DNA of 64,000 nt from Euphorbia lathyris (taxonomy: Eukaryota > Streptophyta > Magnoliopsida > Malpighiales > Euphorbiaceae): positions 16,344,501 through 16,408,500 of the forward strand of contig NC_088916.1 in assembly GCF_963576675.1 (NCBI RefSeq). The letters are read 5' to 3'. Below the pieces are notes generated by a model. It made no database searches. It saw nothing but the letters and a program-made list of their open reading frames with translations, and was not told the DNA's origin. Shown piece after piece: positions 8,701 to 57,609 of this stretch. Position numbers and translations under genes: made by a program. The number at the start of each line of letters is the position of its first letter. The first letter of the stretch is position 1.

Positions 8701-8830
8701 CAAAGGTGAGATCAAGCTGACCTTTGTCCCAACGGACGAGCAGCTTGCTGATATCTTCACGAAGCCACTGGCCCGTGAGCAGTTCAGCATACTGAGAGAA
8801 GCTATTGGTATGTTTAATCCTCTTCAGTAA
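5702..8830 (+). CDS. Sirevirus-A pol: protease, integrase, reverse transcriptase, RNase H
   Basis: An open frame of 1042 residues with copia domain order. The protease active region WYIDSACSRHMTG is near residues 14-26; the usual DSG reads DSA here, as it does in Sirevirus-B. The integrase zinc finger has two His (WHRRLGH) and two Cys (CHAC), followed by the catalytic triad in LDLFGP, SDNGGEF and VVERKNR. Reverse transcriptase has QMDVKSAFLNG and YVDD at residues 728-731. RNase H has TDADYG, STTEAEYIAA and CDNKSA. The frame differs from gag: an in-frame TAA at 5690-5692 stops any upward extension, so a classic long gag-pol overlap is absent. No internal stop or frameshift is visible, which is unusual in this window. 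Confidence 0.93.
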   Translation: MQVSLRCAEKSKMWYIDSACSRHMTGDETQFITFERKRGGSVSFGDNKKGKIVGSGTIGGNPTIESVSLVSGLKYNLLSVAQLCDNGRKVIFDATRCKIYEGESNELILTAPRIDNVFMLDLEKKFSKTVCLVSKEENSWLWHRRLGHVSMDLLAKLARKQLVEGLPELKFEKDQLCHACQAGKQTKQSFHSKNIVSTKHPLELLHLDLFGPVQPLSLGGRRFSLVIVDDFSRYTWVILQSSKDETFETFLNLVRKIENDKDLKLAHIRSDNGGEFKNQKFVEFCEASGIDHNFSAPRTPQQNGVVERKNRTLVEIARTMLDEHKLPKYFWGEAVNTACYILNRALVRPILKKTPYELWKGRKPNIGYFCAFGCKCFILNTKDSLAKFDSKADEAIFLGYSTNSKAYIVFNKRTQVLEESVHVEFDETNPAGRYQPLTEDDPHSVIADQEPATESFTKRLTKSKSEPKITFTDPSTSAEIVETQTTQDMNLPKEIRIPRGHSESAILDSIGNTPMTRNQLRKYLSNVAFVSVQEPKNFADAEEDEFWMNAMQEELDQFKRNDVWELVPHPKSQKTIGTRWVFRNKLDEQGNVVRNKARLVAQGYSQEEGIDYGETFALVARLEVIRILCAYASYMNFKLFQMDVKSAFLNGVINKEVYVNQPPGFEDPKFPNHVYKLKKALYGLKQAPRAWYERLTSFLLTRNYVRGKADTTLFIKRKGKDTLLAQIYVDDIIFSATNESMCKEFSKQMQNEFEMSMMGELNFFLGLQIKQGKNGIFISQAKYAKEILKKYDLENCKPISTPMGTDTVLCADKNGKSVDSKLYRGMIGSLLYLTASRPDIQFSVCYCARYQSNPKESHYIAVKRILRYLQSSVSAGLWYPNTHDFTLIGYTDADYGRDKLERKSTSGGCHFLGSCLVSWFSKKQAPVALSTTEAEYIAAGHCVAQVLWIKQQLEDYGVQTKTIEVKCDNKSAIDLSKNPIQHSRMKHVSIRHHFIRDHVLKGEIKLTFVPTDEQLADIFTKPLAREQFSILREAIGMFNPLQ

Positions 8831-9183
8831 ATTCCTGAACTAAATGAATATGCATGCTGAGTGAATTACTATGCTGAATGATTGTTTTTGCTGAGTACTC
8901 ATTGAAATTAATTGAACAGCAAATTCTGTGTAAACCTTCACACTGAGTAAGTTAGTTTAAACTTAGAAATCATCCCTTTATGCAATACTGACCACTCAGA
9001 ATATGAAACGCTTAATATTCTAAACGCTGAGTGTTAGATCCGTTAGAATAAATGCAAAAGCATGCGTATAGTCACCTAGGATGACGTACGCGTCGAATGT
9101 GTCATAAAAGCCAGGATTTTTGTCGGTTCACAATGCCAAGGCAAAACTGACACATGGATTCGTTAAGATCCACACTTCACCGC
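8831..9183 (+). other. Spacer between pol and env-like ORF of Sirevirus-A
   Basis: About 350 bp with no long open frame. It is rich in CTGAG/CTGAC words like the rest of the element and leads into a TATA box at 9184. Confidence 0.6.
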
Positions 9184-9192
9184 TATAAATAA
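9184..9192 (+). promoter_or_regulatory. Candidate internal TATA box before the env-like ORF
   Basis: TATAAATAA is preceded by CACTTCACCGC and followed by a pyrimidine-rich stretch (TTTTCTCTTTA at about 9210). It lies 104 bases before the ATG at 9296. The layout resembles a plant core promoter and could give a separate env-like transcript. Function is inferred only. Confidence 0.45.
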
Positions 9193-9295
9193 TGGGTAAA
9201 TCCCCATTGTTTTCTCTTTACGTCTACCAAATTCTAAGGCAAAGAAAGCTTTCTCTCTAAAAACTCTCAAAGCTTCCCAAACGCATTCTTCAACT

Positions 9296-12159
9296 ATGAC
9301 TAAAGTTACCTTCAACATCTCCGGTGCTGGCCACTCTAAGCCCAGCTCCGATGAAACTTCCAGGCAAACCTCTGTGCCGGAATCCACCAAGGTCACCTCA
9401 CCGAGCAAAGGAAAAACTGGCCAAACCTCCTCTGGTAAGGGAAAGCCTGAAAACGTCCGAGAATGGAAGGTTGAGCCCTCAAGATGGGTATCTGAAGCAT
9501 TCGTACAAACCGAACAACCCTTCTGTGAGTGGATTTCATAAAATGGATGGACTGAACTGTTTTCAATTAGGGATCCCACCTATCCTGACCTTGTAAAGGA
9601 GTTTTACCACAACCTCCGCGTTGCTGATGATAACCAGGACTACCTGGTAACCGTGGTGAAAGAGAAAACCATCTTCATCAACCCTCTCTACCTAGGAAAT
9701 TTTCTCAAGTTAAAAACTGAGGGAACAAGGCTAAGGAGATCTGGAGATCAGGATGGTACTGGGTACGAGGTCAACTTCTGTAAACCTGCAGGCCACTCAG
9801 GAGAAGTATCCAGTTCCTCCATGGGTCAGCACTAGAAGATGGCTCATTATCTGTTGAGTTATTTTATCTATCCCAAGATTAACTGCACAACCTCAGCAAC
9901 AAACTTCGAGCAATGCTTCATCTGGCATATGCTGACGTACAAGCCGATCAACCTGCCAGTATTCCTCATTGCTGGCTTCCAAAGGAGTACCGGAACCTTA
10001 AGGCTAGGATCACTCATCACCAGGATCCTCATTGATCATCAGATAGACCTAACTGATGAAGAAATAGCTAAAGGATCAGAAATCACAGCGGCTTCGCTGA
10101 GAGCGTTGAAGTTCGGTCAGCCTCTAAAGAAAGGAAAAGCTGCTGCTGCTACTGGACAAGCTGAGGAAACAGTTGTTCCGCAGAAAGGGAAAAGATCTAA
10201 GGCACCCACTTCTCGTAAGAGGAAAGCTGTTGAGACTCCTTCACATGATTCTGAGTCTCCAGCTAAGAGGCAAAAGTCAGCTGGTACTAAGGGTCAGGAG
10301 AGACCTAAGTCAGCTGATAAACGAAGCAGGCAAGATGAGCCTGAAACTGAGGACAAAACTGATGCTGATGTGCAACCTCAGAAGAAGCACAAGTCTTCTC
10401 CACTGACTCCCCTCGATGTTATCCCTACTAACATTGTTGTGCCTGGTGACTCTCACTACACACAGTGTTTAGGAACTGTGTCTGAGGAACAAGAAGAAGA
10501 GGTGCATCTGGACGACCAGTTCATTGCACAAGTTGAGGAAGAATTGGATGGGGATTCTGATGACGATGATGAGAACAACGATGATGCTGACTCCGAGGAG
10601 ACAGCTAGTGAAATCGAAGCTGAGCAAGCCAATACTGGGTTTGCTGCTGGAGAAGAGCAAGAACTTGACCAACACAATGTTGATCAAGTCCAAGAGCAAG
10701 CTGTCCTCCCTCATCATGATCAGGAAGAAACTTCTCCTTCTCACTCAGGAGAGTCTATTCAAGCTGGCAAACCTCCTCCTCCTCGAAGAAGAAAACTCAT
10801 CAAGGCAAGTCAGAAAGAAGTCAGTGAGACTCCTGTTGAACTAACAACTCTTCCTACCTTTGCCATTCAACAACCAACCAAAGACCCCTCTGCCCTAAAA
10901 CTCAGATTTGTTGGGAGAAAACCTGCGGCATCCATCGAAAAACAAGCCTCTGTTTCTTCCCAACAGGAACATGCCGACCAAAATGCTTCTGCCACCTTAA
11001 CAAGTCAGGTTGAGACGAGTATTGTCAATACTGTCCATCCAAGCATTGTGCTGACTCCAAACACATCTGCCCCCATCAGTACAGACAGTATTCGAGTTTC
11101 CACTTCTCCAACTCATCTATCTGCCGATCAAACTCGTCCCCAAATGAACCAAGTGCAGATTGAAAACACCATTCCAGTCACTGACCATGTCATTCCTTTG
11201 ACTCCTCCTCCTACCGGTCACACTGATGTCACTGAAGGCTCTCAAAGCTATCTGAATGCCACTGAGTCCGGTAAAAGAATAATCGATTCAGTGCAAGCGT
11301 TGATCAAAGACCTTCAACAATCCACTCCTCCTGCTGCTGGGTCTTCATCTATTGAGACTACTCAGCTTTCCCAGGTCATTCAGCTTCTCAACGAAGTTAA
11401 GGGATTCAAGGACTTGCTGAATGTCATCATCTCCTATCAAACACAGCAAGCTAAGCAGGATTCCATCACCAAGCTGGCCGAGATCCAGCTGACAACTGTG
11501 CAACACTTAAACGCTCTACAACAGCAAGTACAGAACTTGTCAGCTGTGAACCCTGGATATGCAACTTCTGATGAGGTAAAGATGCTCTTTGCTCAGCTTC
11601 ACACCGAGCAACTCAAGACCAATGAGCAAATGGTCTCTTACTCTCAGTGCTCAGTGGAGCAAATTGGTGAAGCTATTCGATTGCTGAATCTGAACAAGCA
11701 AGAGATGGACACTGACCAAATGAAACAAAACGAGATGTTGTCTATCACAAGACAAACCTTCAATCACATCCGTCACACAAATGTTCAGCGTCAGTACTTT
11801 GACACCTACCTACTCAAAACCTTTCATCAAGTCATTGCTGGACTAACTGGTGCGCTTATATGGATTGGTAAGTCTGAAGCTTTCATCGTCAGTATGATCA
11901 GCGCTGCTGAACTCAAAATACCTGATGAAGTCTCAAATCAGGGAGTTGCCATTTTTGATGGTGTAAATGAAAGCGCTGACCGACTTAAAGCGCTGACCGA
12001 CTTAAAGCGCTTTCCAACGAACTAACCAGGGCTGTCTTAACCGACAGCTTTAGAATTCCTCCTCCCGATGCTGACAAAACGGGGGAGAGAGATCAAGCGA
12101 GAACACCAGCAAGAACACAGCATGGGTCAAGTCAGTCCCAACAGAAGAAAAAGAAATAG
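9296..12159 (+). pseudogene. Sirevirus-A env-like third ORF, two nonsense codons and a 17-bp duplication
   Basis: This is the third ORF typical of many Sireviruses, placed between pol and the 3' LTR; its role is unknown. One frame runs from ATG 9296 to 12023-12025 with only two stops, TAA at 9539-9541 and TAG at 9833-9835. The first part (about 9540-10080) resembles the putative plant transposon protein domain, with a hydrophobic helical region (HYLLSYFIYP). Next comes a basic Ser/Lys/Pro region, then a strongly acidic stretch (about 10490-10640), a Pro/Ser/Thr-rich stretch and a Gln-rich, probably coiled-coil C-terminal part (11280-11900). A 17-bp tandem duplication at 11971-12004 shifts the frame close to the end; the other frame stays open to TAG 12157-12159. 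No clear signal peptide is seen. Confidence 0.78.
11971..12004 (+). repeat. 17-bp tandem duplication inside the env-like ORF
   Basis: The unit AAGCGCTGACCGACTTA occurs twice in a row (11971-11987 and 11988-12004), followed by a third partial AAGCGCT. Seventeen is not a multiple of three, so it alters the reading frame. Confidence 0.95.
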
Positions 12160-12717
12160 ATATATAGGCTAGCTCAGTATAGGCTAAGTATGTAGTCTGT
12201 ATTTCTTTTTGCCTATCTTTGAACTGTTGATTGTAAACACTGACTATCTATTTTTAATATCAATACTTGCATCTTCCGTTCAAAACTCTGAGTTATGAAT
12301 TATTTGCATACGATGTTGTGTATAATGTTATTCTGTGTCTTCAATTAAATCAGCTATGTTTAAGACTTATAAAACTTACTGATTAAACCCAATACTGATA
12401 ACATGTTTGACATTGACTTATATGCCTATATAACATTGTCTTATAGAAATCATTGAACAACAAATTACTCAGCGCACTCTAAATGATTAAACCTTCCGCT
12501 TAATACTGAGTAAATAGAATATGTTACATAAGCTGACCTATATCTGAAAACTGACCTTAGACTTACTCAATTAAACCTTTAAATGTTTAGAGTAAAACTA
12601 AGTCAGTAACTCAATCCTGACGGGGGAGTTTGCTAAGTTATAATAGGTCAACTATCATGGGGGAGCTCAATACTGAGTTCCTCGCTGAATAGTTTTGCCA
12701 ACATCAAAATGGGGGAG
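12081..12717 (+). repeat. Repeated polypurine motifs (GGGGGAG) before the 3' LTR
   Basis: GGGGGAG occurs at about 12081, 12622, 12659 and 12711. The last, in AAAATGGGGGAGTT, abuts the 3' LTR and is the expected plus-strand primer. Multiple PPT-like motifs are a known Sirevirus trait. Confidence 0.8.
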
Positions 12718-12719
12718 TT

Positions 12720-14055
12720 TGTTGAAACACCTTTCTACATAATTTTGATTTGACAAAATTGTTTAAGTATAATTGAAATACATATTCTAAAACACACTAA
12801 GTTTAAGTGCTTTGATTTATTCTACTAATGTGTTTGTTCAATGTTGAGTTAAATTGTTTATAAGAAACAAGAATCAAAAGGCTCAAGCCCAATACGGAAG
12901 TCAAAGCCCAAGTCAAACAACTCAGTACCACTCGGCCCGCGTTTGTCAAAACGTTGTCGCTTTGGACAAAACGCAACTCAGCGAAAGAAGGATCTAGAAG
13001 ACCTTCGGGAACAACTTCAAGATGAAGCTGCTGAGTAGATTCGATAAACGTACAAGACAGCAGCTGGCTAAGGAAAACTTCCAGACAAAGTATTTCTACT
13101 TTGGGTAAAGTTCAGATGACACAGTATGCTGTCCAGTTGACTTTACCATAAAAGGAGAGACATTCTGCTAAGCTGACCGAGAACAGAAGATACACAAATC
13201 TGATTGGCCGAGAGCTCTGAGCAAGTCAGGATGACAACGATAGGAAGCCGTTTCCCTCCAACGGTTATTTCGAAATTCGAAATGACTGATGCCCAAACGT
13301 CTCTATAAATAGAGTGCTATCAGAAGCTTTAATACTTACAAAACTTGATCAAGCCATTACGCTGACCAAATCTCTACGCAAAGTTCTGCAAGCAAAAAGC
13401 AAAGCAACCTTACACTACATTTAATATCTTTTGTGTAAAAGTCTAGAGTGATTATTCAATCATCTAAGGTGTCTTAGTAAATCATTGTTTAGGACAAACA
13501 CTTATCATTTCTAGAAAGTAGAAAGGAGAGGCTGAGTACTCGGTTATAGTACTCAGCGAGAGATTAGGATTGAGTAGAGGTATAAAGGAAGGTACTCTTG
13601 TTATACTCAGTTGCTAAGATTGTAAAAGGTTTGAGGCTCTACCTTTAAAGAGCTCAGTAGAGGATTCGAAATCTCGGAACGTGTTCCGGGGACAGGACGT
13701 AGGCTTAGAAGAAGCCGAACCTGGATAAATCTGCTGAGTAACGTATTTCTTACCTTAAACTCCTTATATATATTGCTTGCTTAAATAACCAAAAACTGAC
13801 CAAGTTAAGAGGTCAAGCTGAGTTGTGCGCATCGAACATCTGAGCTCAGGAATAGACTTTAAGTGCTATCTCCTGACTCAAGTCAAGAAACTGACCTAGT
13901 CACCGGTTGACTAAGCCAGTATCTTACTGATCACTCAGCGTCGCTGTTGAATCCTTTTTCTCTTTAGAAAAGAATTCTGCCCTAAGGTTGAAAAGTTTAA
14001 ATAGTTCCTAACCCCCCCCTTGGAACTATACTTCCAACGTTATAAGGGACCAACA
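12720..14055 (+). repeat. 3' LTR of Sirevirus-A
   Basis: 1336 bp from TGTTGAAACACC to GGGACCAACA, nearly identical to 2559-3894, with a TATA box at 13304-13312. The copy of ATATT at 14056-14060 follows directly. Confidence 0.95.
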
Positions 14056-14441
14056 ATATTAACACTCATAGAGTAAAGAACCTCCTAAAGCCGCTTCCGA
14101 TTGGCCAGGACAGGGTCAGCATACACCAGGGTAATGAAAAATGGGTTATTACCAGCAACACTTACTTTACTATGAATAAACTATTTATCCATACTAATTA
14201 TATCAAAATGAACGCGATCTGGCTTCCAGAAAAGCCAAATCCCACCAGCCCGGCCAGTAGCCTCCGATCTAACACAGTTCCAGTTTTTAAACTTTTTAGC
14301 CACCTCATCTGCTTTATCTCCACTAATCTTAGTTTCCATTAAAGCAAAACAAGAAGGATTAAATTGTTTGATTAAATCATTAACATGGATACGGGTAGCC
14401 TTGCTAGCCGCACCTCTAACATTCCAAAGCAACAAATCCAT
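14056..14441 (-). pseudogene. LINE-A ORF2 N-terminus (APE-type endonuclease start)
   Basis: ORF2 starts at the ATG at 14441-14439 (MDLLLWNVRG) and contains the endonuclease Asn motif WNVRG and Glu motif METKISG. In-frame TAG codons at 14183-14181 and 14087-14085 match CAG and TGG codons of LINE-B. The end of ORF1 lies just upstream, with its TAG stop at 14476-14474 in a different frame, so the normal ORF1 stop/ORF2 start arrangement survives here but not in LINE-B. Confidence 0.85.
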
Positions 14442-14531
14442 AGAAAGGAGGACAACTGACCGCACCCACAAACCTAAGACATGTATTTATTAGGGGCTCC
14501 TGAGAGCCTTGCCGAGGTACCCGCAGGCCCT
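14056..14531 (-). mobile_element. LINE-A, continuation beyond Sirevirus-A
   Basis: LINE-A resumes after the ATATT duplication and is again cut at 14531 by the 5' LTR of Sirevirus-B. It corresponds to about 39390-39850 of LINE-B. Confidence 0.9.
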
Positions 14532-15879
14532 TGTTGAAATACCTTTCCACATGATTTTGATTTGACAAACTTATTTAAGTAAAATTAAATATATTCTAAA
14601 CACACTAAGTTTAAATGCTTTGATTTATTATACTAATGTGTTTGTTCAATGTTGAGTTAAAATTGTTTATAAGACATAAAGAATAAAAACCCCAAGGCCC
14701 ATACGGAAGTCAAGGCCCAAGTCAAACAGATCAAGACAACTCGGCCCGCGTGTGCAAAACGCTGTCGTTCTGATCAAAACGCAACTCAGCAAGAGAAGGA
14801 TCTAGAAGACCTTCGTTGAACAACTTCGGAGTGAAGCCGCTGAGTTGAATCGACAAAGAGTACAAGACAACAGCTGAGCAAGAACAACTTCCAGACAAAG
14901 TGTTTCCACTTTGGGTAAAGTTCAGAAGACACAGAACGCTGTCTAGTTGACCTTACCGAAAATGGAGAGACATTCTGCCGAGCTGACTAAAAGCTGCTCA
15001 ACACTGACCGAGGACAGAAGATACTCAAATCTGATTGGCCGAGAGCTCTGAGCAAGACTGAGTGACAACGACAGGAAGCCGTTTCCCTCTAACGGTTATT
15101 TTGAAATTCGAAATGATCGATGTCTCAGACGTCTCTATAAATAGAGCCCTTCAGTTGCTTCATTTCATACAGAACTTGATCAAGCCATTACGCTGACCAA
15201 AATTCTACTCAAAGTTCTGCAAGAAAAAGCAAATCAAATTCTTACACCAAATTTCATATCTTTTGTGTAAAAGTCTAGAGTGATTATTCAATCATCTAAG
15301 GTGTCTTAGCAATTGTTGTTTAGGACAAATCTTTATCATTTCTAGAGATTAAAAAGGAGAGGCTGAGTACTCGGTTATAGTACTCAGCGTGAGTTTAGGA
15401 GTGAGTAGAGGTATAGAGGAAGGTACTCTTGTTATACTCAGCTTCTAAGTTGTAAAAGGTTTGATGCTCTACCGTTAAAGAGCTCAGTAGAGAATTCGAA
15501 ATCTCGGAATGTGTTCCGGGGACAGGACGTAGGCTTGGAGGCCGAACCTGGATAAATCTGCTGAGTAATATCTTTCTAACCTTAAACTCCTTAATATATA
15601 TATTGCTTGCTTAAACAAAACTGACAAAGTAAAGAGGTCAAGCTGAGTTGTGCGCATTGAATATCTGAGCTCAGGAATAGATCCTAAGTGCTATCTCCTG
15701 ACTCAAGTAAAGAAACTGACCTAGTCACCAGTTGACTAAGCCAGTGTCTTGCTATTCACTCAGCGCCGCTGTTAAAACCTTTTTTTCTGAAGAAAAAGAA
15801 GTCTGCCCTAAAGAAAAATTTTAAATAGTTCCTAACCCCCCCCTTGGAACTATACTTGTAATGTTATAAGGGACCAACA
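14532..15879 (+). repeat. 5' LTR of Sirevirus-B
   Basis: 1348 bp from TGTTGAAATACC to GGACCAACA. It aligns over its length with the Sirevirus-A LTRs but with many more differences, so it is an older or different subfamily copy. TATA box at 15136-15144. Confidence 0.92.
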
Positions 15880-15882
15880 AGT

Positions 15883-15894
15883 GGTATCAGAGCT
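15883..15894 (+). other. Primer-binding site (tRNA-iMet), Sirevirus-B
   Basis: TGGTATCAGAGC starts three bases after the LTR, as in Sirevirus-A. Confidence 0.92.
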
Positions 15895-15941
15895 TAAAAG
15901 CTCACTGTAAAAGGTTTAACCACCTTGAGCTGATCCCCACT

Positions 15942-17684
15942 ATGGGCGAAAACAGCACTCGGTTTCTCCCAGGAAACCAAACAACTCAGTTCTTACCTGA
16001 GGGACTGTCCATTACTCGGCCTCCCCTATTCTTCGGGTCTAACTATACCTTCTGGAAGAATATGATGAAAAATTTCATTCAGGCTACAAATATGAGTGCC
16101 TGGCTATCCATAGTCCAAGGCCCATTTGTACCTGTCGAAGTTGTGGCTGGCCAAATAGTTGTTAAAGCTGAGGCCAAATGGACAGAGGATGATCTCAAGA
16201 AGCTACAAAATCACGCTTCGGCTATAAACATGCTTCACTGTGCGCTCGATGCTGCAGAATATAATAAAATTTCAGGTTGTGAGTCGGCGCAAGAGATCTG
16301 GAAGAAGCTGGAGGTCACCTACGAAGGAACCAATAAAGTAAAGGAGTCCAAGGTGAACCAGCAGATGAGACTGTATGAGCTGTTCAAAATGAACGATGAT
16401 GAGGGAATATCTGACATGAATGCAAGGTTTACAAACATCATCAATGAGCTCAAGAAACTTGGGAAGATCTTCACTGAGGAAGAACAAGTCAAGAAGATTC
16501 TCAGGAGTCTTCCTAAAGACTGGCAAGCAAAGAAGACCGCTGTTGAGGAAGCTCAGGACTTAACCACCTACAAATATGATGAGCTCATCGGCTCGCTGCT
16601 GACCCATGAGATATCAATGAAAAACTTCGAGGTGAAGGAAAAGTCTGAAGACAAGAAGCAGAAGTCTCTTGTCATGAAAGCTGACTCCACTGATGGGAAC
16701 TCAACAGACGACGAAGAGATGGCTATGTTCACCAGAAAGATGAAAAGGCTATTCAGAAAGAATGACAAATATTCTAAGAAGCCTTACAGAAAGTTTGATA
16801 AGTATAAAGCTGACTCAAGTGACAGCAAATACAAAAAGGACAGCTCAAAGCCCATTACATGCTTTGAATGTCATCAAACTGGCCATATCAAGTCAAGCTG
16901 CCCCACGCTGAGGAAAGAAAAGAAGAACGGCAAGAAGGCAATGGTGGCAACATGGAGCGACAGTGATGAGTCTTCATCAACAGAAGCTGAGGCCACTGAG
17001 TCAGCGAAGATATGCTTTATGGCTGACGAACTTGCTGAGCCGTGCGTCTCTGAGCATGCTGACCCCTCCATTGCATCTGACGATGAGGAGCAATCAAATG
17101 AGGTAATATCACTTCCCCAGCTCAGAAATGAAATGGTAAAGGCCCTGAGTGACCTCTACACACTTGTTAAAAAGTGTAATAAGAAAGTTAGAGCACTCAG
17201 CAGGCATTGTGACGAGGTTGAAGAGGTCAAGCTGAGTGACCTCAGATTCCTTCTTCAGGACAACTCAACTTTGCATGATAACATGGAGATCATACATAAG
17301 TCTGTCTCTGAAGTCCAATCAGATTCTAAGAAACTGAGAAAGGACGTCACAGCTATCCAGAACCAACTAAAGGTTCCAAACAAAAGAAATATTCCTCGGA
17401 ATACTCAGTACCGAGGTACTGTTCAGCAGAGATGGAATCCCCAGCGGAATGTCCAGTGTGACTTCTGTGGGAAGAAAGGACACACCACAAAGGTGTGCTG
17501 GCACGCTCAGCACTGGGGTGCTGACCAGTCAGTGAGAAATCCTAAACGGAAGGTCAGCTGTGACTTCTGTGGAAAGAATGGACATACTGTCCATGTATGT
17601 CGCCATAAAATAAAATATGATGATTTACCTGTTGAACCTAACAAGCAAGGACCCAAAAAGAATTGGGTACCTAAGAGTAACTAG
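15942..17684 (+). CDS. Sirevirus-B gag, open reading frame
   Basis: An uninterrupted frame of 580 residues, colinear with the broken gag of Sirevirus-A. It has a copia gag N-terminus (MGENSTRF, FWKNMMKNF) and a CCHC knuckle CFECHQTGHIKSSC near residues 307-320. An acidic region and two CDFCGK knuckles near the C-terminus follow. It should bind element RNA and assemble particles. It retains CAA where Sirevirus-A has TAA. The stop is TAG 17682-17684. Because the rest of the element is lost, any product could act only in trans on related elements. Confidence 0.92.
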   Translation: MGENSTRFLPGNQTTQFLPEGLSITRPPLFFGSNYTFWKNMMKNFIQATNMSAWLSIVQGPFVPVEVVAGQIVVKAEAKWTEDDLKKLQNHASAINMLHCALDAAEYNKISGCESAQEIWKKLEVTYEGTNKVKESKVNQQMRLYELFKMNDDEGISDMNARFTNIINELKKLGKIFTEEEQVKKILRSLPKDWQAKKTAVEEAQDLTTYKYDELIGSLLTHEISMKNFEVKEKSEDKKQKSLVMKADSTDGNSTDDEEMAMFTRKMKRLFRKNDKYSKKPYRKFDKYKADSSDSKYKKDSSKPITCFECHQTGHIKSSCPTLRKEKKNGKKAMVATWSDSDESSSTEAEATESAKICFMADELAEPCVSEHADPSIASDDEEQSNEVISLPQLRNEMVKALSDLYTLVKKCNKKVRALSRHCDEVEEVKLSDLRFLLQDNSTLHDNMEIIHKSVSEVQSDSKKLRKDVTAIQNQLKVPNKRNIPRNTQYRGTVQQRWNPQRNVQCDFCGKKGHTTKVCWHAQHWGADQSVRNPKRKVSCDFCGKNGHTVHVCRHKIKYDDLPVEPNKQGPKKNWVPKSN

Positions 17685-37801: not shown

Positions 37802-39424
37802 ATGCGGCTTTCGAGGTGGAAAGGGGGGTCCGACGCCGATCTGGAGTTAGGAATGGTGGTGGAGACGAAAAAATCGGTCGATCCGATGATCGAAGGTGAT
37901 TTGAATAGGGTAGGGAATGGTTGTGTTGGGGATTCTCGGGAAGTTATGAAGGCCTCCAATGCTCGGGTCAGTATAGTTGATTCTATCAATCATATTGGAG
38001 AATTGGCAAACAACTTTAATTCCAATTTAGGAATAGATCGCTTTTCATGGAAAGATAAGGTGATGGGTGTGGTAGAGGAGGAACCTAGTTTGGAGGAAGA
38101 TGTTATGGAGGACGAGTCGAAAGAATTTCTTTCAGATTCAGATGAAGAGGACAATGATCATGATGATCTGCTTTGTCCCGTGATCCGCCTTTCCTCGGAA
38201 GAGAAGCGTGCTCTTAGAGCCAAATGGAAGCTTGCTCTAATTGTTACAGTGCTGGGCAAAAGAATTAGTTTCAACTATTTTGCTCAGAGAATTCAGGCAC
38301 AGTGGGCAAAGAAAGGTAAAATCAGTATTACTGATCTAGAAAATGATTACTATGTAATTAAGTTTACAAGGTCTGAGGATTTTAATGTCATGATTAATGG
38401 GGGTCATTACATAATTTCTAACCAAGTTCTGGCTTTAACGCCATGGGTTCCAAATTTTAATCCACATGATTGCTCGGTGAACAGAATTCTGACATTGGTT
38501 AGATTCCCAGGGCTTCCAATTGAATATTACAATGAAAGTTTTCTTAACAAAATAGGTGGTTTGGTTGGCAAGGTCCACCATATGGATAAAACAACCATAG
38601 GGGCTATTAGAGGTAAGTTTGCAAGAGTTTGTATTGCCATTGACCTTGTTAAATCCCTCTTGTCTAAGTTTTGTGTTCATAATAAAGTTTACTTTATAGA
38701 GTATGAAGGCCTACATAATATTTGCTTTGAATGTGGCATGTATGGCCATACTTTTGATGGGTGCCCAAAGAGGGAAAAGGTGTTGAAAGAGGTTGGTGAG
38801 GTGGTTGAAAGTAGAGATGAAAGTATTCAAAAGGAAGAGGAAAATTTTGGCCCCTGGATGGTTGCTAAGAGATCTACAGACGTAGGACTCGGCCTTCTGT
38901 TGCTCAGAATCGCCCTCCGGATATTAATATCCAAAATTCTCCGAGTCATTCGAATCCATCCTCGTCTGATAAAGGGAAATTTAGCCCAAAAGTTGATAAA
39001 GGTTCTAGGGGGGCTTCGAGCTTAAATTCAGAGTCTAGATTTGGAGCTCTAAATAGTGTGGAGGCTCAAGATTCAGACCAGTTAGAGAAGCCTATTGGAC
39101 AAAGCAGACCGGATTTAGATTCTGCTGAAACTTCTGACAAAGGGATTGAGACTGTCAACCCCCTCCTTATTTCCAAAGGTGATGGCCAGAATATTTCTAA
39201 AAGCTATGTTACAAATATGAAAGACAAGAATAAAAAGGTTAGTATCCCTAAATCCTATGTTGAACAGAATGTTGGAAAAGTTATGGGGGTTAATAAAATT
39301 AGTATGAAAAAACCTAAAGGCAAGCAGAAAAGTATTCAGAATTCTAGGAATTCTATGAATATTCTGGATAAGAGGGGGCCTAATGGTACCTCAGGAAGGT
39401 TCTTAGGAGCCCTAATAAATACCT
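37802..39424 (+). pseudogene. LINE-B ORF1, nucleic-acid-binding protein, frameshifted
   Basis: ORF1 of plant L1 elements binds the element RNA. 37802-38880 encodes an acidic N-terminal part, a DUF4283-like domain (ALRAKWKLALIV to VLALTPWVPNF, about 38210-38455) and a knuckle CFECGMYGHTFDGC (38726-38767). The frame shifts near 38880, where the Ser/Asn-rich C-terminal part goes on in another frame (ALNSVEAQD). A further missing C near 39408 removes the stop seen in LINE-A, so this frame runs into ORF2. The true start is uncertain; open frames upstream (37488-37790) are in the GC-rich leader. Confidence 0.83.
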
Positions 39425-39462
39425 TATGTAGGGTTTGGGTGGTGTTAGTAGTCTTCCTTTCT

Positions 39463-42400
39463 ATGGATTTGTTGGCTTGGAATGTTAGAGGCGCGACTAG
39501 CAAGGCTACCCGAGTCCATGTTAATGATTTAATTAAACAATTTAATCCCTCTTGTTTTGTTTTAATGGAAACTAAGATTAGTGGAGTTAAGGCAGATGAG
39601 GTGGTTAAAAAGTTTAGAAAATGGAGTTGCATTAGATCGGAAGCTACTGGTCGTGCTGGTGGGATTTGGCTTTTTTGGAAGCCAGATCGAATTCATTTTG
39701 ATATTATTAGTATGGATAAGCAATTTATTCATAGCAAAGTGAGCCTGCCTGGTAATAGTCCTTTCTTTTTTACCTTTGTTTATGCTGATCCTGTCTTGGC
39801 TAATCGTAAAAGGCTTTGGAAGGTTCTCTATTCTATTAGTATTAATATGATTGATTCTTGGTTTGTGGCTGGTGACTTTAATGATATTGTTGTTATGAGT
39901 GATCAGAGAGGGGGGGCTAATCATTATGTGAATCGTTGTCTGAATCATAAGCAGAGTATGGATATATGTGGTCTGTCTGATTTGGGGGCCGCTGGTCATA
40001 AGTTTACTTGGAAGCGGAATAGTACTTTTGTTCGTCTGGATAAAGTTTATGCCAATGTTTCTGCTCAAGTCAGGTTTCCTGAGGTTTGTGTTCTTAATTT
40101 GCCCTTCAGACATTCAGATCATTGTCTTATCTTATTTAGGCTTTGTAGAGCCCAGCAGTCTAAAGGGAATAGGCCGTTTAGATACCAGGTGGCTTGGGAG
40201 TCTCATCCCGAGTTTAAAAATTTTGTGAAAGATAATTGGATTCCTCATTCTAATGTCTTACAAGCCTCAGAAGGTTTTAGAAAGAGTGTTATGGGATGGA
40301 ATAAGAAGATCTTTGGTCATATTATTAGGAGAAAGAACAATTTGTTGAGAAGAATTGAGGGTATTCATCGCAGATTGGAGGCTAGATTTGATCACAGTTT
40401 GGATGGTCTTCTCAGAACTCTTCAGAAGGAGCTTGAAGCTGTTTTAAGACAAGAAGAGCTTCTTTGGTTTCAGATGTCTAGAAAAACTTGGATTAAAGAT
40501 GGAGATCGTAATACCAGGTTTTTTCATCTTTCTACTATTATTATAAGACAGAGAAACAAGATTGATGCTATTAAAGATAGTAATGGTGATTGGGTCTATG
40601 AGAATGAAGATATTCGCAATCTTGCCCTTAACTTTTACAAAGACTTATTCAAAGAGGAGATTGTAGATCTAAATAAAGCTCTGTCTATTACTACTTATCC
40701 CAGGATTGAGGAGGATAATTTTCTGAAAGCTTTTCATCCCTTTAACAAGGAAGAGATTGATCAAGCTATTTTTAGCATGGGGGGCACTAAAGCTCCTGGA
40801 ATTGATGGCATTCCTGCTGGTTTTTATCATAAGCATTGGGATACTGTGAAAGAAGGTATTTATAAGTTTATTGAAGGGGTGTTTATAAATCCTGAAAATA
40901 TTAGGCTTGTGAATAAGACCCTTCTAGTTCTGATCCCCAAAGTTGAAAGACCTTCTTCTGTCTTACAAATGAGACCTATCAGCCTTTGTAATGTTCTCTA
41001 TAAAGTGATAACCAAAATGGTGGCTAATAGACTCCGTGACATTCTTCCAGATATTATCAGTCAGAACCAAGGCAGTTTTGTTATTGGTAGACAAATGATG
41101 GATAATGTTTTTATTGCCCAGGAGATGGTTCATTCTATGAAGATCAAGAAGGGTAGAAAGGGTATTTTGGCTTTCAAGCTGGATCTGGAGAAAGCTTATG
41201 ATCGCCTCAACTGGAGTTTTTTATTTGATAGTCTTGAGAGAGCTGGAATTCCGGAGAGTTGGAGGAGGTTAATTGAGGTATGCATTTCTTCTCCTACTTT
41301 TCAGGTTTTTATCAATGGGGACATGTCTGAGGAGTTCTCCTCCTCCAGGGGTGTTAGGCAAGGCGATCCTATGAGCCCCTTTCTTTTTGTTATAGCTAAG
41401 GAAAGATTGACTCACCTTATCCAGGAGGCAATTGATAATAGGACTTTTCATCCAGTGTCTATTAATAGATTCTGTCCTGCTATTACTCACTTATTCTTTG
41501 TTGATGATGCTATGATCTTTGTGGAAGGGAATGAGGATCAAATGGGGGAGATTATGAAAATCATTAATTGTTTTTGTGAGGCTTCTGGTCAAAAACTTAA
41601 TATTCAGAAGTCTAGAATGCTTTGTTCTAAGAATATGAGTATAAGAATGTGCAAGTTGAGTGATATTTCGGGTATTCCTTTGACCAACTCCTTTGGTAAT
41701 TATCTTGGGGTTCCCCTCCATAGTGATAGAGTCTCTAAAGCTTCTTTTAAAGAGATTCTGGATAAAACTTCTAGCAAATGTGCTAATTGGAAAGCTAAAA
41801 CTTTATCTCTTGCGGGGCGTCTTACTCTTATCGGTTCCTAACCATATTATGCAAGCTTGTAGATTGCCGGAGTCGGTCCTCAATGATCTGGATAAAATTA
41901 ATCATCGTTTTCTTTGGGGGAATTCAGTAGATAATAAGAAGATCCATCTTGTTCCTTGGAAGGAGGTTTGCAAGCCTAGAGATAGAGGGGGTCTGGGGAT
42001 TAGACAAGCTAAAGATAATAACAAAGTTTTATTGATGAAGCTTCTTTGGAGAATGTGGCAGAATCCTTCGGCTCTTTGGGTTCGCTTACTATGTGGTAAG
42101 TATAGAAAAGATAAGATTTTTGGAGGGCCTAAAGAAAGAGTTGTTAACTGTTCCTTTCTCTGGAAAGTCCTCAGTTCTATTTTTTTAGAATTTTGTTCTG
42201 GGATTGGTTGGGATGTGGGTAATGGTAAGACTATCAGCTTTTGGTATGACAAGTGGATTGGTGACAAGTCTCTATTAGAGGTTTGTAGCTCCCTTCCCCC
42301 TGTTAATTTTCGCAACTGGAAGATAGCTGATGTAGTGGATTCTGAAGGTGAATGGATTTGGTCTAAATTTGAGTCTTTTTTTTAGCTTGAATACTCTCTT

Positions 42401-50674: not shown

Positions 50675-50679
50675 GATTT
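50675..50679. repeat. Target-site duplication of copia-C array, left copy (GATTT)
   Basis: GATTT directly before the first LTR equals 57605-57609 directly after the last LTR. Confidence 0.85.
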
Positions 50680-50947
50680 TGTTGGGCTTGACCCATTTAT
50701 AATTTATGAAATTGGCCCATGCATGTGTCTTTAAGTTTTTTCAAGTGAAAAACATCTCACATTACTTTCAAAGCACTTGGTGGAGATGTTTATAAGGAAG
50801 GTCCTCACATGCTTGGGGTGTGCCCCAAGGGGTACCCACTTTTGTGAAAGGGTGAGGACATATCTCTTTGGTTGACCACCACACACGCGCGCGCGCCGTC
50901 CGTCCGACCGAACCGGACCGGGTTGGTGTGGTGTGATGTAAAATGAT
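50680..50947 (+). repeat. Copia-C LTR 1, 5' part only
   Basis: Matches the first about 268 bases of LTR 2 (TGTTGGGCTTG onward) up to GATGTAAAATGAT, then switches to pol sequence. Confidence 0.9.
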
Positions 50948-51110
50948 ACATCGTAAGCACATCACTGTGAGAGAGCTACTCACTAAAGGAGCTGTTAGAG
51001 TGGATCACATACGCTCAGAAGAGAATTTAGCCGATCCTTTGACGAAAGGATTAGCTAGAGAGAAAGTCCATAATACGGCAAAGAGTATGGGACTTATGCC
51101 CCTACAGTGA
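50948..51110 (+). pseudogene. Copia-C pol remnant (RNase H end)
   Basis: Matches 56172-56334 almost base for base: the tail of RNase H with the stop TGA at 51108-51110. Everything upstream of it in this first interior is deleted. The join has a 3-4 base microhomology (GAT). Confidence 0.9.
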
Positions 51111-51621
51111 TGAGTTACACACAATGGTAATCCAACCTATAGACTGGAGATCCCAAGAAATAGGTTCAAAGGGTAATAACAAGTTGTGTGGTAATATGAG
51201 TCAGATCATGCAATTAGAAGCATGAATATCCTGAAGCGATTTGAGGTTGAGATAATAGAAACTCTTAATGAAGTCTATACTCCATTTGGAGTGAAGTACC
51301 TAGCTACAGGAGTACTTTTGATAGACTCACCTATATGAATGTGGAAGTGAGGCCGCTTCCTATGAGTTTAGGGCAAAACTCTAGAGCATTCATTAAACCG
51401 GGATAGACGTGCAAGGCCATAAACGCACGGGCTACTAGAACTACACTCTGAAAAGGTTATGGCGTGATATACGTCAGAGATAGAGTTCAAGACTACGAGT
51501 CACTCTAGTAAAATCTGAACTATACTCACTACGCAAAGGTTCAAATCGAAAGATACCTCTGCTTATGTCTGACCTTATGTAACTGCTCAGTAAAACGATT
51601 TCAAAAATTCTAGTGGGGGAT
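51111..51621 (+). other. Copia-C 3' untranslated interior and polypurine tract (first interior)
   Basis: About 510 bp nearly identical to 56335-56845. It ends in TAGTGGGGGAT (51611-51621), the plus-strand primer site directly before LTR 2. Confidence 0.88.
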
Positions 51622-52411
51622 TGTTGGGCTTGGCCCATTTATAATTTATGAAATTGGCCCATGCATGTGTCTTTAAGTTTTTTCAAGTGAAAAACATCCC
51701 ACATTGCTTTCAAAGCACTTGGTGGAGATGTTTATAAGGAAGGTCCTCACATGCTTGGGATGTGCCCCAAGGGGTACCCACTTTTGTGAAAGGGTGAGGA
51801 CCTATCTCTTTGGTTGACCACCACACACACGCGCGCGCACCGTCCGTCCGACCGAATCGGGCCGGGTTGGGTTGGGTTGGGTTGGGTTGGTGTAAAATGA
51901 TTAATTTTTTATTAAAAAAATTATTATTAATAATATTATTTATTATTATTTTTAATTTCGGAAATCCTTTTTTATTTAATTATTTATGCTCTGATTTAGT
52001 CTTTGTGAACGTTGTTCACAACGTCCATTTTTCTGAACGTGTCTTCAGTCTCCTCCACCTTCTTGGTTTTCCTCCTTCTCTTTCTCCATGAAATCAGAGC
52101 TCAAACAGCTCTTTTTTCTTGTATAAATAGGTGATGAGAGACTACCTTCAAACACAATTTACTTTCATTCATTCTGTATTTTTTTCGAAACTGAGCAAGT
52201 AAACAGAGAGTGTATACAGAACGATTTTCGTACGGTGCAATACGAAAATCGTATTTAAGAGGGCTGTTTTATCCTGGAGGCGACCGGAGTTCATACTGTT
52301 TGCTAAATTTCGGCAGTTCCGCGAACGTCTTAAAGAAAGCGACATTGTCCGCGACTCTGCCCATTTAATTTTGTTCGGTCCGTTCCTATTTTCTGAGTTC
52401 GAGCTACAACA
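51622..52411 (+). repeat. Copia-C LTR 2 (middle)
   Basis: 790 bp, TGTTGGGC to GCTACAACA. It contains an alternating CACACACGCGCGCG stretch (about 51821-51840), five GGGTT repeats (51864-51890) and a TATA box at 52122-52130. Confidence 0.92.
52122..52130 (+). promoter_or_regulatory. TATA box in copia-C LTR 2
   Basis: TATAAATAG in CTTGTATAAATAGGTG; the same site is at 57315-57323 in LTR 3. Confidence 0.7.
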
Positions 52412-52437
52412 ATTTTAAGACGGTTCAATTACTGCTG

Positions 52438-55400
52438 ATGGCTACCGAACAATCAAATGGGATTGCTGAGATTAACAAACCATTCCGGTTTGAAGGAGCT
52501 CATTTCCGAAGATGGAGACAGAAGATGATGTTCTACCTCACAACAAAGAAGGTAGCTTCTGTTCTGACTTCGGAAAAACCAATTGTTCCTGAAGATGGTG
52601 ACGAGGCAGATGTTCGTGCTGCTGAGAGATGGACAAAAAATTATTTTCTGTGCAAAAATTATATACTCAATGGACTGACTGACGATCTGTATGATTACTA
52701 CACTGTTGAAAAAAAAACAGCAAAAGAAATTTGGGAAGCTCTGCAGAGGAAATATGACACTGAGGAGGCCGGATCGAAAAAGTACGCTGTAAGCTGCTAC
52801 CTCAAATTCCAGATGACTGATGACAAGTCAATGGAAATTCAATCTCATGAATTACAGAAGATAGCACATGAAATTATTTCAGAAGGTATGCCTTTAAACG
52901 ATCAATTTCAAGTTGCTGTCATTATTGACAAATTGCCTCCTTCGTGGAAAGATTTTAAAAATATTTTGAGGCACAAAACAAAAGAATTTTGGATGGAAAG
53001 TTTGATTACTCGCCTCCGAATTGAGGAGGAAGCTCGAAAACAAGATTTAAAAGAGGAACTGCTTATTGTTTCTAATAGCACTAAAAGGTCCACTGCGGTT
53101 CTGAAACCCACTCAAAAGAATTTTAAGAATCAGAACCGCAAACCAATCCAAAACCGCAACACCCGAGTTAATTTGAATTGGAACCTTCAAAGGAACCAAA
53201 ATAGGCCACAACAACAACCACCTAGAAATGATGCTGCTTTCCTATGCTTTAATTGTGGGGAACCAGGTCACATGGCACGTAAGTGCAGGAACATGCCAAA
53301 CACTACTCCTAGTGTTAACCTGACTGAAGAGCAATATAACTTTGTTGCTATGATTTCTGAGATCAACCTCATAGGTGGATCAGATGGGTGGTGGGTAGAC
53401 ACTGGTGCCTCTCGCCATGTTTGCTATGATAGAAGTATGTTAAAAACATACAGTGCTGTGACTGAAGATAAGAAAGTGTTATTGGGTGATTCCCATACCA
53501 CTATTGTTGCTGGAATTGGTAGTGTGGAATTGAACTTCACATCTGGAAAAACCTTAACTTTGAAGGATGTGATGCATACTCCAGAAATGAGAAAAAATTT
53601 GGTTTCGGGCTATCTTCTCAACAAGGCTGGTTTTACTCAGACTATAGGAGCAGATTTATTTACTTTGACTAAGAACAATGTATTTGTAGGAAAAGGTTAT
53701 GCTACTAAAGGCATGTTTAAGTTGAATGTTGAGATTAATAAAGTGAATGCTTCTATTTACTCCTTGTGTACTTTTAATGTTTGGCATGCTCGTTTTTGTC
53801 ATGTTAATAAGCGAATCATTAAAAATATGAGTAACTTAGGGTTAATTCCAAAATTGAATTTGAATGAATTTCTTAAATGTGATTATTGTAGTTAGGCAAA
53901 AATCACAAAAACACCTCATAAATCTGTTGTTAGGGATTCTGAACCTCTAGATTTAATTCATTCAGATATATGTGAATTAGATGGAAAGTTGACTAGAAAT
54001 GACAAACGGTACTTTATAACCTTTATTGATGATTGTTCTGACTTTACTTTTGTTTATCTTATGAAAAATAAAAGTGAAGCGTTTGACATGTTTAAGTTGT
54101 TCATAGTTGAAATAGAAAATCAATACAATAGGAAAGTCAAGAGACTTCGTAGCGATAGAGGCACAGAATATGGTTCTAGCCTGTTTATTGATTTCTATAA
54201 AACACATGGTATTATACATGAAACCACAGCACCTTATTCACCAGAAATGAATGGAAAGGCTGAAAGGAAAAATAGGACACTTACCGAATCTGTAGTAGCT
54301 ATTATGCTTAGTTCAGGTGCCGCCTCACATTGGTGGGGAGAAATCCTTTTGACTGTTTGCTATGTGCTAAATAGGGTCCCTAAATCCAGAAGCAAAATCT
54401 CTCCTTATGAGATCTTGAAAAATAAAACACCTAGTCTATCATATTTTAGAACTTGGGGTTGTTTGGCTTATGTTAGGATTCCTGACCCTAAGAGAGTCAA
54501 ACTTGCTAGTAGGGCTTATGAATGTGTGTTTATTAGATATGCTGTGAATAGCAAAGCATATAGGTTCTATGATTTGAATGCGAAAGTCATATTGGAGTCG
54601 AACGATGCTAACTTTTATGAAGATAGATTTCCTTTTAAGTTGAGAAATAGTGGGGGTGCATCATCTAGTAGCATACCTGCTACTAGACCTATAATGCAAA
54701 AAGAGATTGAGGAATCTGAACCTAGGAGAAGTAAGAGACCTAGAGTATCTAAAGATTTTGGTTCTGACTTTTATGCTTTCACAGTAGAAGAGGATCCACT
54801 TACCATACAAGAAGCCTTAACATCATTAGATGCTGACTTATGGCAAGAAGCCATTAATGATGAAATGGACTCACTTGAGTCAAACCAAACTTGGTACTTA
54901 GTAGACTTACCACCAGGTTGTAAACCAATAGGTTGTAAATGGATCCTTAAGAAGAAACTGAAACCTGATGGTTCAGTAGATAAGTTTAAGGCTCGCCTTG
55001 TAGCTAAAGGCTTTAGACAAAGAGAAAATGTTGATTTCTTTGATACTTATTCACCTGTCACTAGGATTACGTCTATACGTGTTTTGATTGCTATTGCTTC
55101 TGTGCACAATCTAGTAGTGCACCAAATGGATGTTAAAACTGCGTTTTTGAATGGTGAACTAGAAGAAGAGGTTTATATGGATCAACCTGAGGGCTTTGTA
55201 GTCTTTGGTCAAGCCCATAAGGTATGTAAGTTAGATAAGTCTTTATATGGGCTAAAACAAGCACCTAAGCAATGGCATGCAAAATTTGACAACTTGATTA
55301 TTTCAAATGGCTATAAGGTGAATGAAAGTGATAAGTGTATCTACTATAAATATGAAAATGGTCTTTGCACCATTATATGCCTATATGTTGATGACTTGCT

Positions 55401-56334
55401 TATTTTTGGATCTAATATTCATGTTGTAAATGTTGTTAAGTCAATGTTGTGTGAGAACTTTGACATGAAAGATCTAGGAGAAGCGAACGTCATTCTTGGC
55501 ATAAAGATAACTAGGTCTGAAACTGGAATTTCTCTAGATCAATCTCACTACGTTGAGAAGATTCTAAAGAAATATAACTACTTTGATTGTAAACCTGCAT
55601 GTACACCTTATGACCCTGGTATAAAACTTTTTAAGAACACTGGAGACAGTGTAAGACAATCAGAGTATGCTAGCATAATTGGCAGTCTTCGTTACGCCAC
55701 TGATTGTACTAGACCCGACATCGCGTATGTCGTAGGACTGCTATGCAGATTTACAAGTAGACCTAGTGTGGAGCATTGGAATGTTATAGAAAGGGTCATG
55801 AGATACCTTAAAAGAACCATGAAACTTGGATTACATTATCAAAGGTTTCCAGCAGTCCTTGAAGGATATAGTGATGCTGACTGGAATACCTTATCAGATG
55901 ATTCCAAGGCTACTAGTGGCTATATTTTCAATATAGCTGGTGGTGCTGTTTCATAGAAGTCTAAGAAACAGACTATTCTAGCTCAATCAACCATGGAATC
56001 AGAACTGATTGCACTAGCTGTGGCTAGTGAAGAAGCAGGTTGGTTGAGAAGTCTGTTAGCTGAGATTCCCATATGGGAAAAACCGATTCCAGCTATATTG
56101 ATCCACTGCGATAGTACCGCGGCTATTGCTAAGATTCAGAATCGTTATTACAACGATAAGAAACGACAGATATGTCGTAAGCACATCACTGTGAGAGAGC
56201 TACTCACTAAAGGAGCTGTTAGAGTGGATCACATACGCTCAGAAGAGAATTTAGCCGATCCTTTGACGAAAGGATTAGCTAGAGAGATAGTCCATAATAC
56301 GGCAAAGAGTATGGGACTTATGCCCCTACAGTGA
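52438..56334 (+). pseudogene. Copia-C gag-pol polyprotein, two nonsense codons
   Basis: One frame of 1298 codons with no frameshift, broken by TAG at 53893-53895 (codon 486) and TAG at 55954-55956 (codon 1173); context suggests original CAG and TGG. Gag has an N-terminal copia region (FRRWRQKMMFYL) and a CCHC knuckle CFNCGEPGHMARKC at about residue 270. The protease has WVDTGASRH with Asp at 321. The integrase finger (WHARFCH, CDYC) is followed by the catalytic region IDDCSDF, SDRGTEYG and KAERKNR. RT shows QMDVKTAFLNG and YVDD at 983-986. RNase H has YSDADW and STMESELIALA. It starts only 27 bases after LTR 2. The copia lineage is not assigned. Confidence 0.92.
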
Positions 56335-56845
56335 TGAGTTACACACAATGGTAATCCAACCTATAGACTGGAGATCCCAAGAAATAGGTTCAAAGGGTAA
56401 TAACAAGTTGTGTGGTAATATGAGTCAGATCATGCAATTAGAAGCATGAATATCCTGAAGCGATTTGAGGTTGAGATAATAGAAACTCTTAATGAAGTCT
56501 ATACTCCATTTGGAGTGAAGTACCTAGCTACAGGAGTACTTTTGATAGACTCACCTATATGAATGTGGAAGTGAGGCCGCTTCCTATGAGTTTAGGGCAA
56601 AACTCTAGAGCATTCATTAAACCGGGATAGACGTGCAAGGCCATAAACGCACGGGCTACTAGAACTACACTCTGAAAAGGTTATGGCGTGATATACGTCA
56701 GAGATAGAGTTCAAGACTACGAGTCACTCTAGTAAAATCTGAACTATACTCACTACGCAAAGGTTCAAATCGAAAGATACCTCTGCTTATGTCTGACCTT
56801 ATGTAACTGCTCAGTAAAACGATTTCAAAAATTTTAGTAGGGGAT
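56335..56845 (+). other. Copia-C 3' untranslated interior and polypurine tract (second interior)
   Basis: About 510 bp between the pol stop and LTR 3, nearly identical to 51111-51621. The PPT reads TAGTAGGGGAT here, one base different from TAGTGGGGGAT in the first interior. Confidence 0.88.
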
Positions 56846-57604
56846 TGTTGGGCTTGGCCCATTTATAATTTATGAAATTGGCCCATGCATGTGTCTTTAA
56901 GTTTTTTCAAGTGAAAAACATCCCACATTGCTTTCAAAGCACTTGGTGGAGATGTTTATAAGGAAGGTCCTCACATGCTTGGGGTGTGCCCCAAGGGGTA
57001 CCCACTTTTGTGAAAGGGTGAGGACCTATCTCTTTGGTTGACCACCACACGCGCGCGCCCGCCGTCCGTCCGACCGAGCCGGGTTGGGTTGGGTTGGGTT
57101 GGTGTTAAAAAATTATTATTAATAATATTATTTATTTATTATTTTTAATTTCGGAAATCCTTTTTTATTTAATTATTTATGCTCTGATTTAGTCTTTGTG
57201 AACGTTGTTCACAACGTCCATTTTTCTGAACGTGTCTTCAGTCTCCTCCACCTTCCTGGTTTTCCTCCTTCTCTTTCTCCATGAAATCAGAGCTCAAACA
57301 GCTCTTTTTTCTTGTATAAATAGGTGAAGAGAGACTGCCTTCAAACATAATTTACTTTCATTCATTCTGTATTTTTTTCGAAACTGAGCAAGTAAACAGA
57401 GAGTGTATATAGAACGATTTTCGTACGGTGCAATACGAAAATCGTATTTAAGAGGGCTGTTTTATCCTGGAGGCGACCGGAGTTCATACTGTTTGCTAAA
57501 TTCCGGCAGTTCCGCGAACGTCTTAAAGAAAGCGACATTGTCCGCGACTCTGCCCATTTAATTTTGTTCGGTCTGTTCCTATTTTCTGAGTTCGAGCTAC
57601 AATA
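56846..57604 (+). repeat. Copia-C LTR 3
   Basis: 759 bp, very close to LTR 2 but with a shorter GGGTT array and a short deletion after it; ends GCTACAATA (C to T in the terminal CA). GATTT follows at 57605-57609. Confidence 0.9.
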
Positions 57605-57609
57605 GATTT

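What the first reader, a model, noticed from the sequence alone, without database searches (positions are those of the whole stretch)
50675..57609. Three-LTR copia array with one shared target duplication
LTR 1 (partial), LTR 2 and LTR 3 are in direct order, with GATTT only outside the whole array. Two separate insertions would each give their own duplication. Unequal recombination between LTRs of sister copies, or insertion of a tandem cDNA, followed by a deletion from LTR 1 into RNase H (join near 50947, microhomology GAT), explains it. The duplicated 3' interiors (51111-51621 and 56335-56845) are almost identical, so the duplication is recent.
Basis: partly seen in the sequence, partly recalled or inferred. 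Interest (0 to 1): 0.75.

Follow-up and report, generated by a model that had tools for sequence, protein, structure and literature searches.

The report
Tandem copia retrotransposon sharing one LTR
A jumping gene (a copia retrotransposon, in what looks like a plant genome) sits here as a tandem array with three of its end repeats but one insertion footprint, most likely because one inserted copy was duplicated by uneven recombination between its end repeats and then partly deleted; this is a known kind of structure.

Summary
The array is real: GATTT, LTR1 (first 268 nt), 3' end of an interior, complete LTR2, full copia interior, complete LTR3, GATTT. No inner 5-bp duplication exists; 7 of 10 other copies of the family show outer 5-bp duplications. 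The deletion joint (LTR1 into the end of pol, microhomology GAT) was not seen in any of the 39 other places scored (of 945 candidates).

The two 3' interiors share a substitution whose 27-base context occurs nowhere else in the assembly, so they come from one source. The LTR1-LTR2 comparison is uninformative.

Best mechanism: one insertion, later unequal recombination between its 3' and 5' LTRs on sister or homologous chromosomes, and a microhomology deletion. Segments expected to be young have diverged 2.2 to 3.9 times less than those expected to be as old as the insertion, but support is modest (P 0.004 to 0.11 by treatment). Insertion as a dimeric cDNA is not excluded. A second array of the family lies on another contig. 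Tandem LTR retrotransposons are documented in plants, so this is a new member of a known kind.

The parts
50675..50679 (.). target-site duplication GATTT, left copy
50680..50947 (+). LTR1, partial: first 268 nt, ends at the GAT microhomology (50945-50947)
50945..50947 (.). deletion joint (GAT microhomology) between LTR1 and the end of pol
   Evidence: seen only here among 40 places scored of 945 candidates; interior side in family copies
50948..51621 (+). upstream 3' interior (int3a): end of the pol frame (RNase H by position, recalled), 3' untranslated part, polypurine tract
   Evidence: shares T at 51131 with 56355
51622..52411 (+). LTR2, complete, shared by both units; proposed recombinant LTR
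52412..56845 (+). copia interior (gag, zinc knuckle, integrase core, reverse transcriptase by Pfam), with in-frame stops at 53893 and 55954 before the end stop at 56332
56172..56845 (+). downstream 3' interior (int3b), copy of 50948-51621
56846..57604 (+). LTR3, complete; about 20 nt kept by LTR2 and most family copies shown are missing near 57103; ends CAATA
57605..57609 (.). target-site duplication GATTT, right copy

Best explanation
One copia element inserted once, making the GATTT duplication (supported by the outer duplication and the lack of inner ones). Later its 3' LTR recombined with the 5' LTR of the same element on the sister or homologous chromosome, giving LTR-interior-LTR-interior-LTR inside the single duplication (inferred). 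On this model LTR2 is a chimera: left part from the 3' LTR, right part from the 5' LTR. A GAT-microhomology deletion removed the right part of LTR1 and most of the upstream interior (joint shown; timing unknown).
For: GATTT outside only. Both 3' interiors carry T at 51131/56355, where 49 of 49 other copies aligned have C; an exact 27-base pattern with T occurs in the assembly only at these two places. Changes per segment against family states: segments predicted to date from the duplication (LTR2-left 1, LTR3-left 0, int3a 1, int3b 4) total 6 in 1750; segments predicted to date from the insertion (LTR1-left 4, LTR2-right 4, LTR3-right 4) total 12 in 1140. Weighted by the singleton rates of these regions in other copies (0.0045 left LTR, 0.0042 interior, 0.0052 right LTR per base), one-sided P = 0.041 with all sites and 0.011 without the CpG pair at 50949-50950. 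The older set matches LTR pairs of ordinary copies: left part 2-8 in about 202 (8 pairs), right part 6-12 in 434-473 (9 pairs). Left LTR2 and LTR3 also share a GGGTT-repeat type that LTR1 lacks. Joint seen only here among 40 places scored.
Against: The age contrast rests on 18 changes and was set up after I had seen the differences. It fades to P = 0.10 if states seen in more than three other copies are dropped and the CpG pair kept, and to 0.11 if the interiors are left out. No derived base joins LTR2-right to LTR1-right, because LTR1-right is deleted. The GGGTT type also occurs in 5 other LTRs of four loci and differs within the pair of L001, so it recurs. Gene conversion could mimic the pattern. 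No reads, other accessions or solo-LTR alleles could be seen, and the flank searches did not complete.
Confidence: 0.66

Rival explanations
1. The array was inserted in one piece as a dimeric or template-switched cDNA, with the deletion afterwards; all LTRs and both interiors are then the same age.
For: Single outer duplication; both interiors from one source; published model for copia complexes with outer duplications (PMC1950507). Some treatments of the age test are not significant (P 0.10, 0.11).
Against: Unequal ages of segments in the other treatments, P 0.004 to 0.045. In the published model the two outer LTRs are identical at insertion; here, in the left 202 nt, LTR1-LTR3 differ at 4 sites and LTR2-LTR3 at 1.
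Confidence: 0.18
2. Integrase-independent recombination (single-strand annealing) of an incoming cDNA of the family into a resident copy through an LTR.
For: A described route to tandems, suggested for plants too (PMC12786077, passages). It keeps the single duplication of the resident.
Against: The two interiors share a substitution whose context is found at no third place in the assembly, so the cDNA would have to come from this same copy or from a copy not present now.
Confidence: 0.1
3. Two neighbouring independent insertions recombined, or one nested in the other.
For: The usual explanation of complex elements before 2007, as told in PMC1950507.
Against: The outer 5-bp repeats match and no inner 5-bp duplication exists; the interiors share a base not found in 49 other copies.
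Confidence: 0.02
4. Assembly artefact (haplotypes or reads joined wrongly).
For: No reads were available; repeats of 99% identity are risky places.
Against: The copies carry changes of their own, the joint has microhomology and was seen only here, and a second array exists elsewhere.
Confidence: 0.04

Closest known systems
Tandem LTR-retrotransposon structures of plants (Morales-Diaz et al. 2025, PMC11899658; abstract, background, methods, most of the results and the discussion read)
   Same: Alternating LTRs and interiors sharing an internal LTR, outer 5-bp duplication, similar units; reported there in rice, Arabidopsis, almond and cotton
   Different: Here the upstream unit is cut down by a deletion and only the first third of LTR1 remains. 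That paper leaves recombination against tandem insertion undecided; here segment ages lean to recombination.
Template-switching complexes (Sabot and Schulman 2007, PMC1950507; whole text read)
   Same: Complexes with three LTRs and outer 5-bp duplications, copia among them
   Different: That model makes the two outer LTRs identical at insertion; here LTR2 and LTR3 are the closest pair in the left part.
Wukong TRIM arrays of maize (PMC4528315; abstract, passages and the section on tandem arrangement seen)
   Same: Of 89 intact elements, 15 have three to seven LTRs, usually in one orientation, attributed there to recombination
   Different: Wukong is a small TRIM element; this one is a copia element with coding domains.
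Integrase-independent tandem insertion (review PMC12786077; passages seen)
   Same: Tandems sharing LTRs
   Different: Needs a cDNA donor; no third copy with the shared base was found.

Membership tests
Ty1/copia LTR retrotransposon | gag, then integrase, then copia-type reverse transcriptase (copia order, recalled) | tested here: met
   Pfam PF14223, PF13976, PF00665, PF07727 in that order in the pieces 52438-53895 and 53989-55956
Ty1/copia LTR retrotransposon | LTRs TG...CA with 5-bp target duplication | tested here: met
   TGTTGGG...CAACA in LTR2; LTR3 ends CAATA; GATTT outside
Ty1/copia LTR retrotransposon | tRNA primer binding site after the 5' LTR | not tested
   LTR2 is followed by ATTTTAAGACGGTTCA, alike in other family copies; it was not compared with tRNAs
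Tandem LTR-RT (one insertion, shared LTR) | Interior-LTR-interior without inner duplication, with an outer one | tested here: met
Tandem LTR-RT (one insertion, shared LTR) | Two interiors from the same source | tested here: met
   Shared T, absent from 49 of 49 other copies; its 27-base context at two places only
Template-switching complex | Outer LTRs are the most similar pair | tested here: not met
   Left 202 nt: LTR1-LTR3 4, LTR1-LTR2 5, LTR2-LTR3 1; small numbers, and the right part of LTR1 is gone
Unequal LTR recombination product | Middle LTR is a chimera, with two ages of divergence | tested here: inconclusive
   Age contrast P 0.004 to 0.11 by treatment; LTR1-right is missing
Unequal LTR recombination product | Single-copy or solo-LTR alleles at the same site | not testable with these tools
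   Only one assembly of this organism is held here

The most novel reading that the evidence does not exclude
The array transposed as one tandem unit: a dimeric cDNA with three LTRs was integrated by a copia integrase, making tandem transposition rather than later recombination the source of such arrays in this family.
Probability: 0.18. Interest if true: 0.45.

Novelty: new member of a known kind. Interest (0 to 1): 0.24.

Why it matters
How tandem LTR retrotransposons arise in plants was left open in a 2025 survey (PMC11899658, discussion). Comparing ages segment by segment can separate duplication after insertion from insertion as a tandem, and could be run on any array with three full LTRs. 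This case leans to recombination, but its truncated LTR1 limits the power.

Tried and rejected
Rejected: near-identity of the 3' interiors as proof of a recent duplication (an unlinked copy ties); LTR1-LTR2 similarity as a test (uninformative); the ~20-nt loss in LTR3 as a marker of chimerism (other LTRs shown mostly keep the sequence, so it is a change of LTR3). An early count of 3 differences in 671 left out two sites next to the joint that I first blamed on the joint; family copies mostly read ACGTCG there (28 and 1 rows; 3 rows read like int3a), and each interior has lost that CpG in its own way, so 5 in 673 is right and the test was redone. A first regular expression for that site matched only the window and was replaced. 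Passages of PMC4600303 concern nested copies and did not help.

All treatments of the age test: equal rates without the CpG pair 0.0043, region-weighted 0.011, without LTR1 0.025, left LTR only 0.045, without interiors 0.11; without states seen in more than three other copies 0.033, without the last LTR3 change 0.019; with the CpG pair 0.041 region-weighted, 0.018 equal rates, 0.10 without states seen in more than three other copies.

Not obtained: whether the flanks are single-copy, an empty-site relative, and a genome-wide count of internal LTR junctions. As a partial substitute, of 52 interior-to-LTR junctions in the loci already fetched plus the window, 3 are internal (2 in the C8 array, 1 here), 46 terminal and 3 not covered to the LTR end; these loci were chosen for similarity to this copy and are not a random sample.

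Rows dropped: L013 (overlaps L014), L017 (no close family copy) and L018 (the window itself) from the alignments and; hits covering under 90% of a query; L043-L045 (like L042) from the rate control.

Full report
The window lies at C7:16344501-16408500 of a 1.02-Gb assembly in 33 contigs. It is taken to be a plant genome from its size and element content (inference; the organism was not identified). Positions 50675-57609 hold GATTT, LTR1 (50680-50947), a 3' interior (50948-51621), LTR2 (51622-52411), a full interior (52412-56845), LTR3 (56846-57604) and GATTT. The interior is copia by Pfam: gag, beta-barrel domain, zinc knuckle, pre-integrase, integrase core and copia-type reverse transcriptase, found in two open pieces sent apart. 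The third piece, 55993-56334, had no Pfam match; calling it the RNase H end rests on its position (recalled). The frame has stops at 53893 and 55954 before the end stop at 56332, so this copy looks inactive (inference).

The single target duplication holds. Of 10 other copies examined with flanks, 7 have exact 5-bp duplications (L001, L003, L005, L006, L008, L010, L014) and 3 do not (L002, L004, L007). No such duplication surrounds LTR2 or precedes LTR3; the bases there are family interior sequence. The deletion joint was matched across its length only here among 40 places scored of 945 candidates; LTR (AAAATGAT) and interior (AGAT) share GAT.

Are the two 3' interiors copies of one source? 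They differ at 5 of 673 sites. Family copies are so alike that this alone proves little: C6:68638135 is as close to the upstream interior as the downstream one is (40 of 478 candidates scored). The shared T at 51131 and 56355 is the stronger evidence: 49 of 49 other copies aligned have C, and an exact 27-base pattern with T occurs in the assembly only at these two places; a copy with T and another change within those 27 bases would be missed. A second shared T (50962/56186) occurs in 3 of 49 others.

Which route made the array? Unequal recombination between the LTRs of one insertion predicts two ages: LTR2-left with LTR3-left, and the two 3' interiors, date from the duplication; LTR1-left, LTR2-right and LTR3-right date from the insertion. 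Tandem insertion predicts one age. Counting changes against family states gives 6 in 1750 bases for the first set and 12 in 1140 for the second. Region rates, measured as singletons in other copies, are similar (0.0045 left LTR, 0.0042 interior, 0.0052 right LTR; 60, 46 and 55 copies). One-sided P is 0.041 with all sites and region weights, 0.018 with equal rates, 0.011 without a CpG pair, 0.10 when states seen in over three other copies are dropped, and 0.11 when the interiors are left out; the full list is under Tried and rejected. I set up the test after seeing the differences, so these values are a guide. Ordinary copies show divergence like that of the older set: left part 2-8 in about 202 (8 pairs), right part 6-12 in 434-473 (9 pairs), the C8 array left out of both. 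With 7e-9 to 1.3e-8 changes per site per year (recalled plant rates) the older set gives 0.8-1.5 and the younger 0.3-0.5 million years; these are rough.

The template-switching model of PMC1950507 makes the outer LTRs identical at insertion. In the left 202 nt LTR1-LTR3 differ at 4 sites, LTR1-LTR2 at 5, LTR2-LTR3 at 1. LTR2 and LTR3 share a GGGTT-repeat type that LTR1 lacks, though the type recurs in 5 LTRs of four other loci. This is weak evidence against template switching.

A second array of the family lies on C8:86287075-86302620, minus strand: three LTRs and three interiors, the upstream interior cut at interior position 372 and no LTR found in the next 6 kb. Its three 3' interiors share a base absent from 49 of 49 other rows (the two of this window among them), two of them share another absent from all 49, and at one further site a different two agree (1 of 49 others has it), which suggests exchange inside the array or recurrent change (inference). 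Divergence there does not show a clear two-age pattern: 3' interiors differ by 5-9 in about 670 and LTRs by 11-15 in 714-786, and I did not run the test on it. Of 52 interior-to-LTR junctions in fetched loci and the window, 3 are internal, 46 terminal, 3 not covered.

Tandem LTR retrotransposons sharing an LTR are reported as widespread in plants with the mechanism left open (PMC11899658); a 2025 review adds integrase-independent recombination as a route (PMC12786077, passages); Wukong arrays of maize are another case (PMC4528315). The paper searches place this as a known kind. The verdict is an ordinary but well-resolved member with a lean towards recombination.

Noticed in passing
L009, L015, L016 (C8:86287075-86302620, minus strand): Second tandem array of the same copia family: three LTRs, three interiors, 5' end truncated; the middle interior carries a deletion and internal rearrangement.
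   Followed up: partly
L033 and L042-L045 (C7:9067300-9248940): Five family copies with the same 3' flanking bases, four of them 53-56 kb apart, pointing to repeated duplication of a larger block.
   Followed up: no
L007:572-1276: After 77 bases of interior the end of the 5' LTR is repeated (local duplication of LTR end plus interior start).
   Followed up: no
L004:412-1305: The 5' LTR holds an internal tandem duplication of about 120 bases around the CG-rich stretch.
   Followed up: no
window 52412-52427: The interior just after LTR2 (ATTTTAAGACGGTTCA), alike in other family copies, does not begin with the TGG expected of a plain tRNA 3'-end primer site (recalled expectation); the primer is unclear.
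   Followed up: no
window 5702-17684: Other copia sequence: integrase and copia reverse transcriptase in the ORF 5702-8830 and copia gag in the ORF 15942-17684, an order that suggests two elements.
   Followed up: no
window 37802-41841: LINE-like pair of ORFs: DUF4283 with zinc knuckle, then endonuclease with RVT_1.
   Followed up: no
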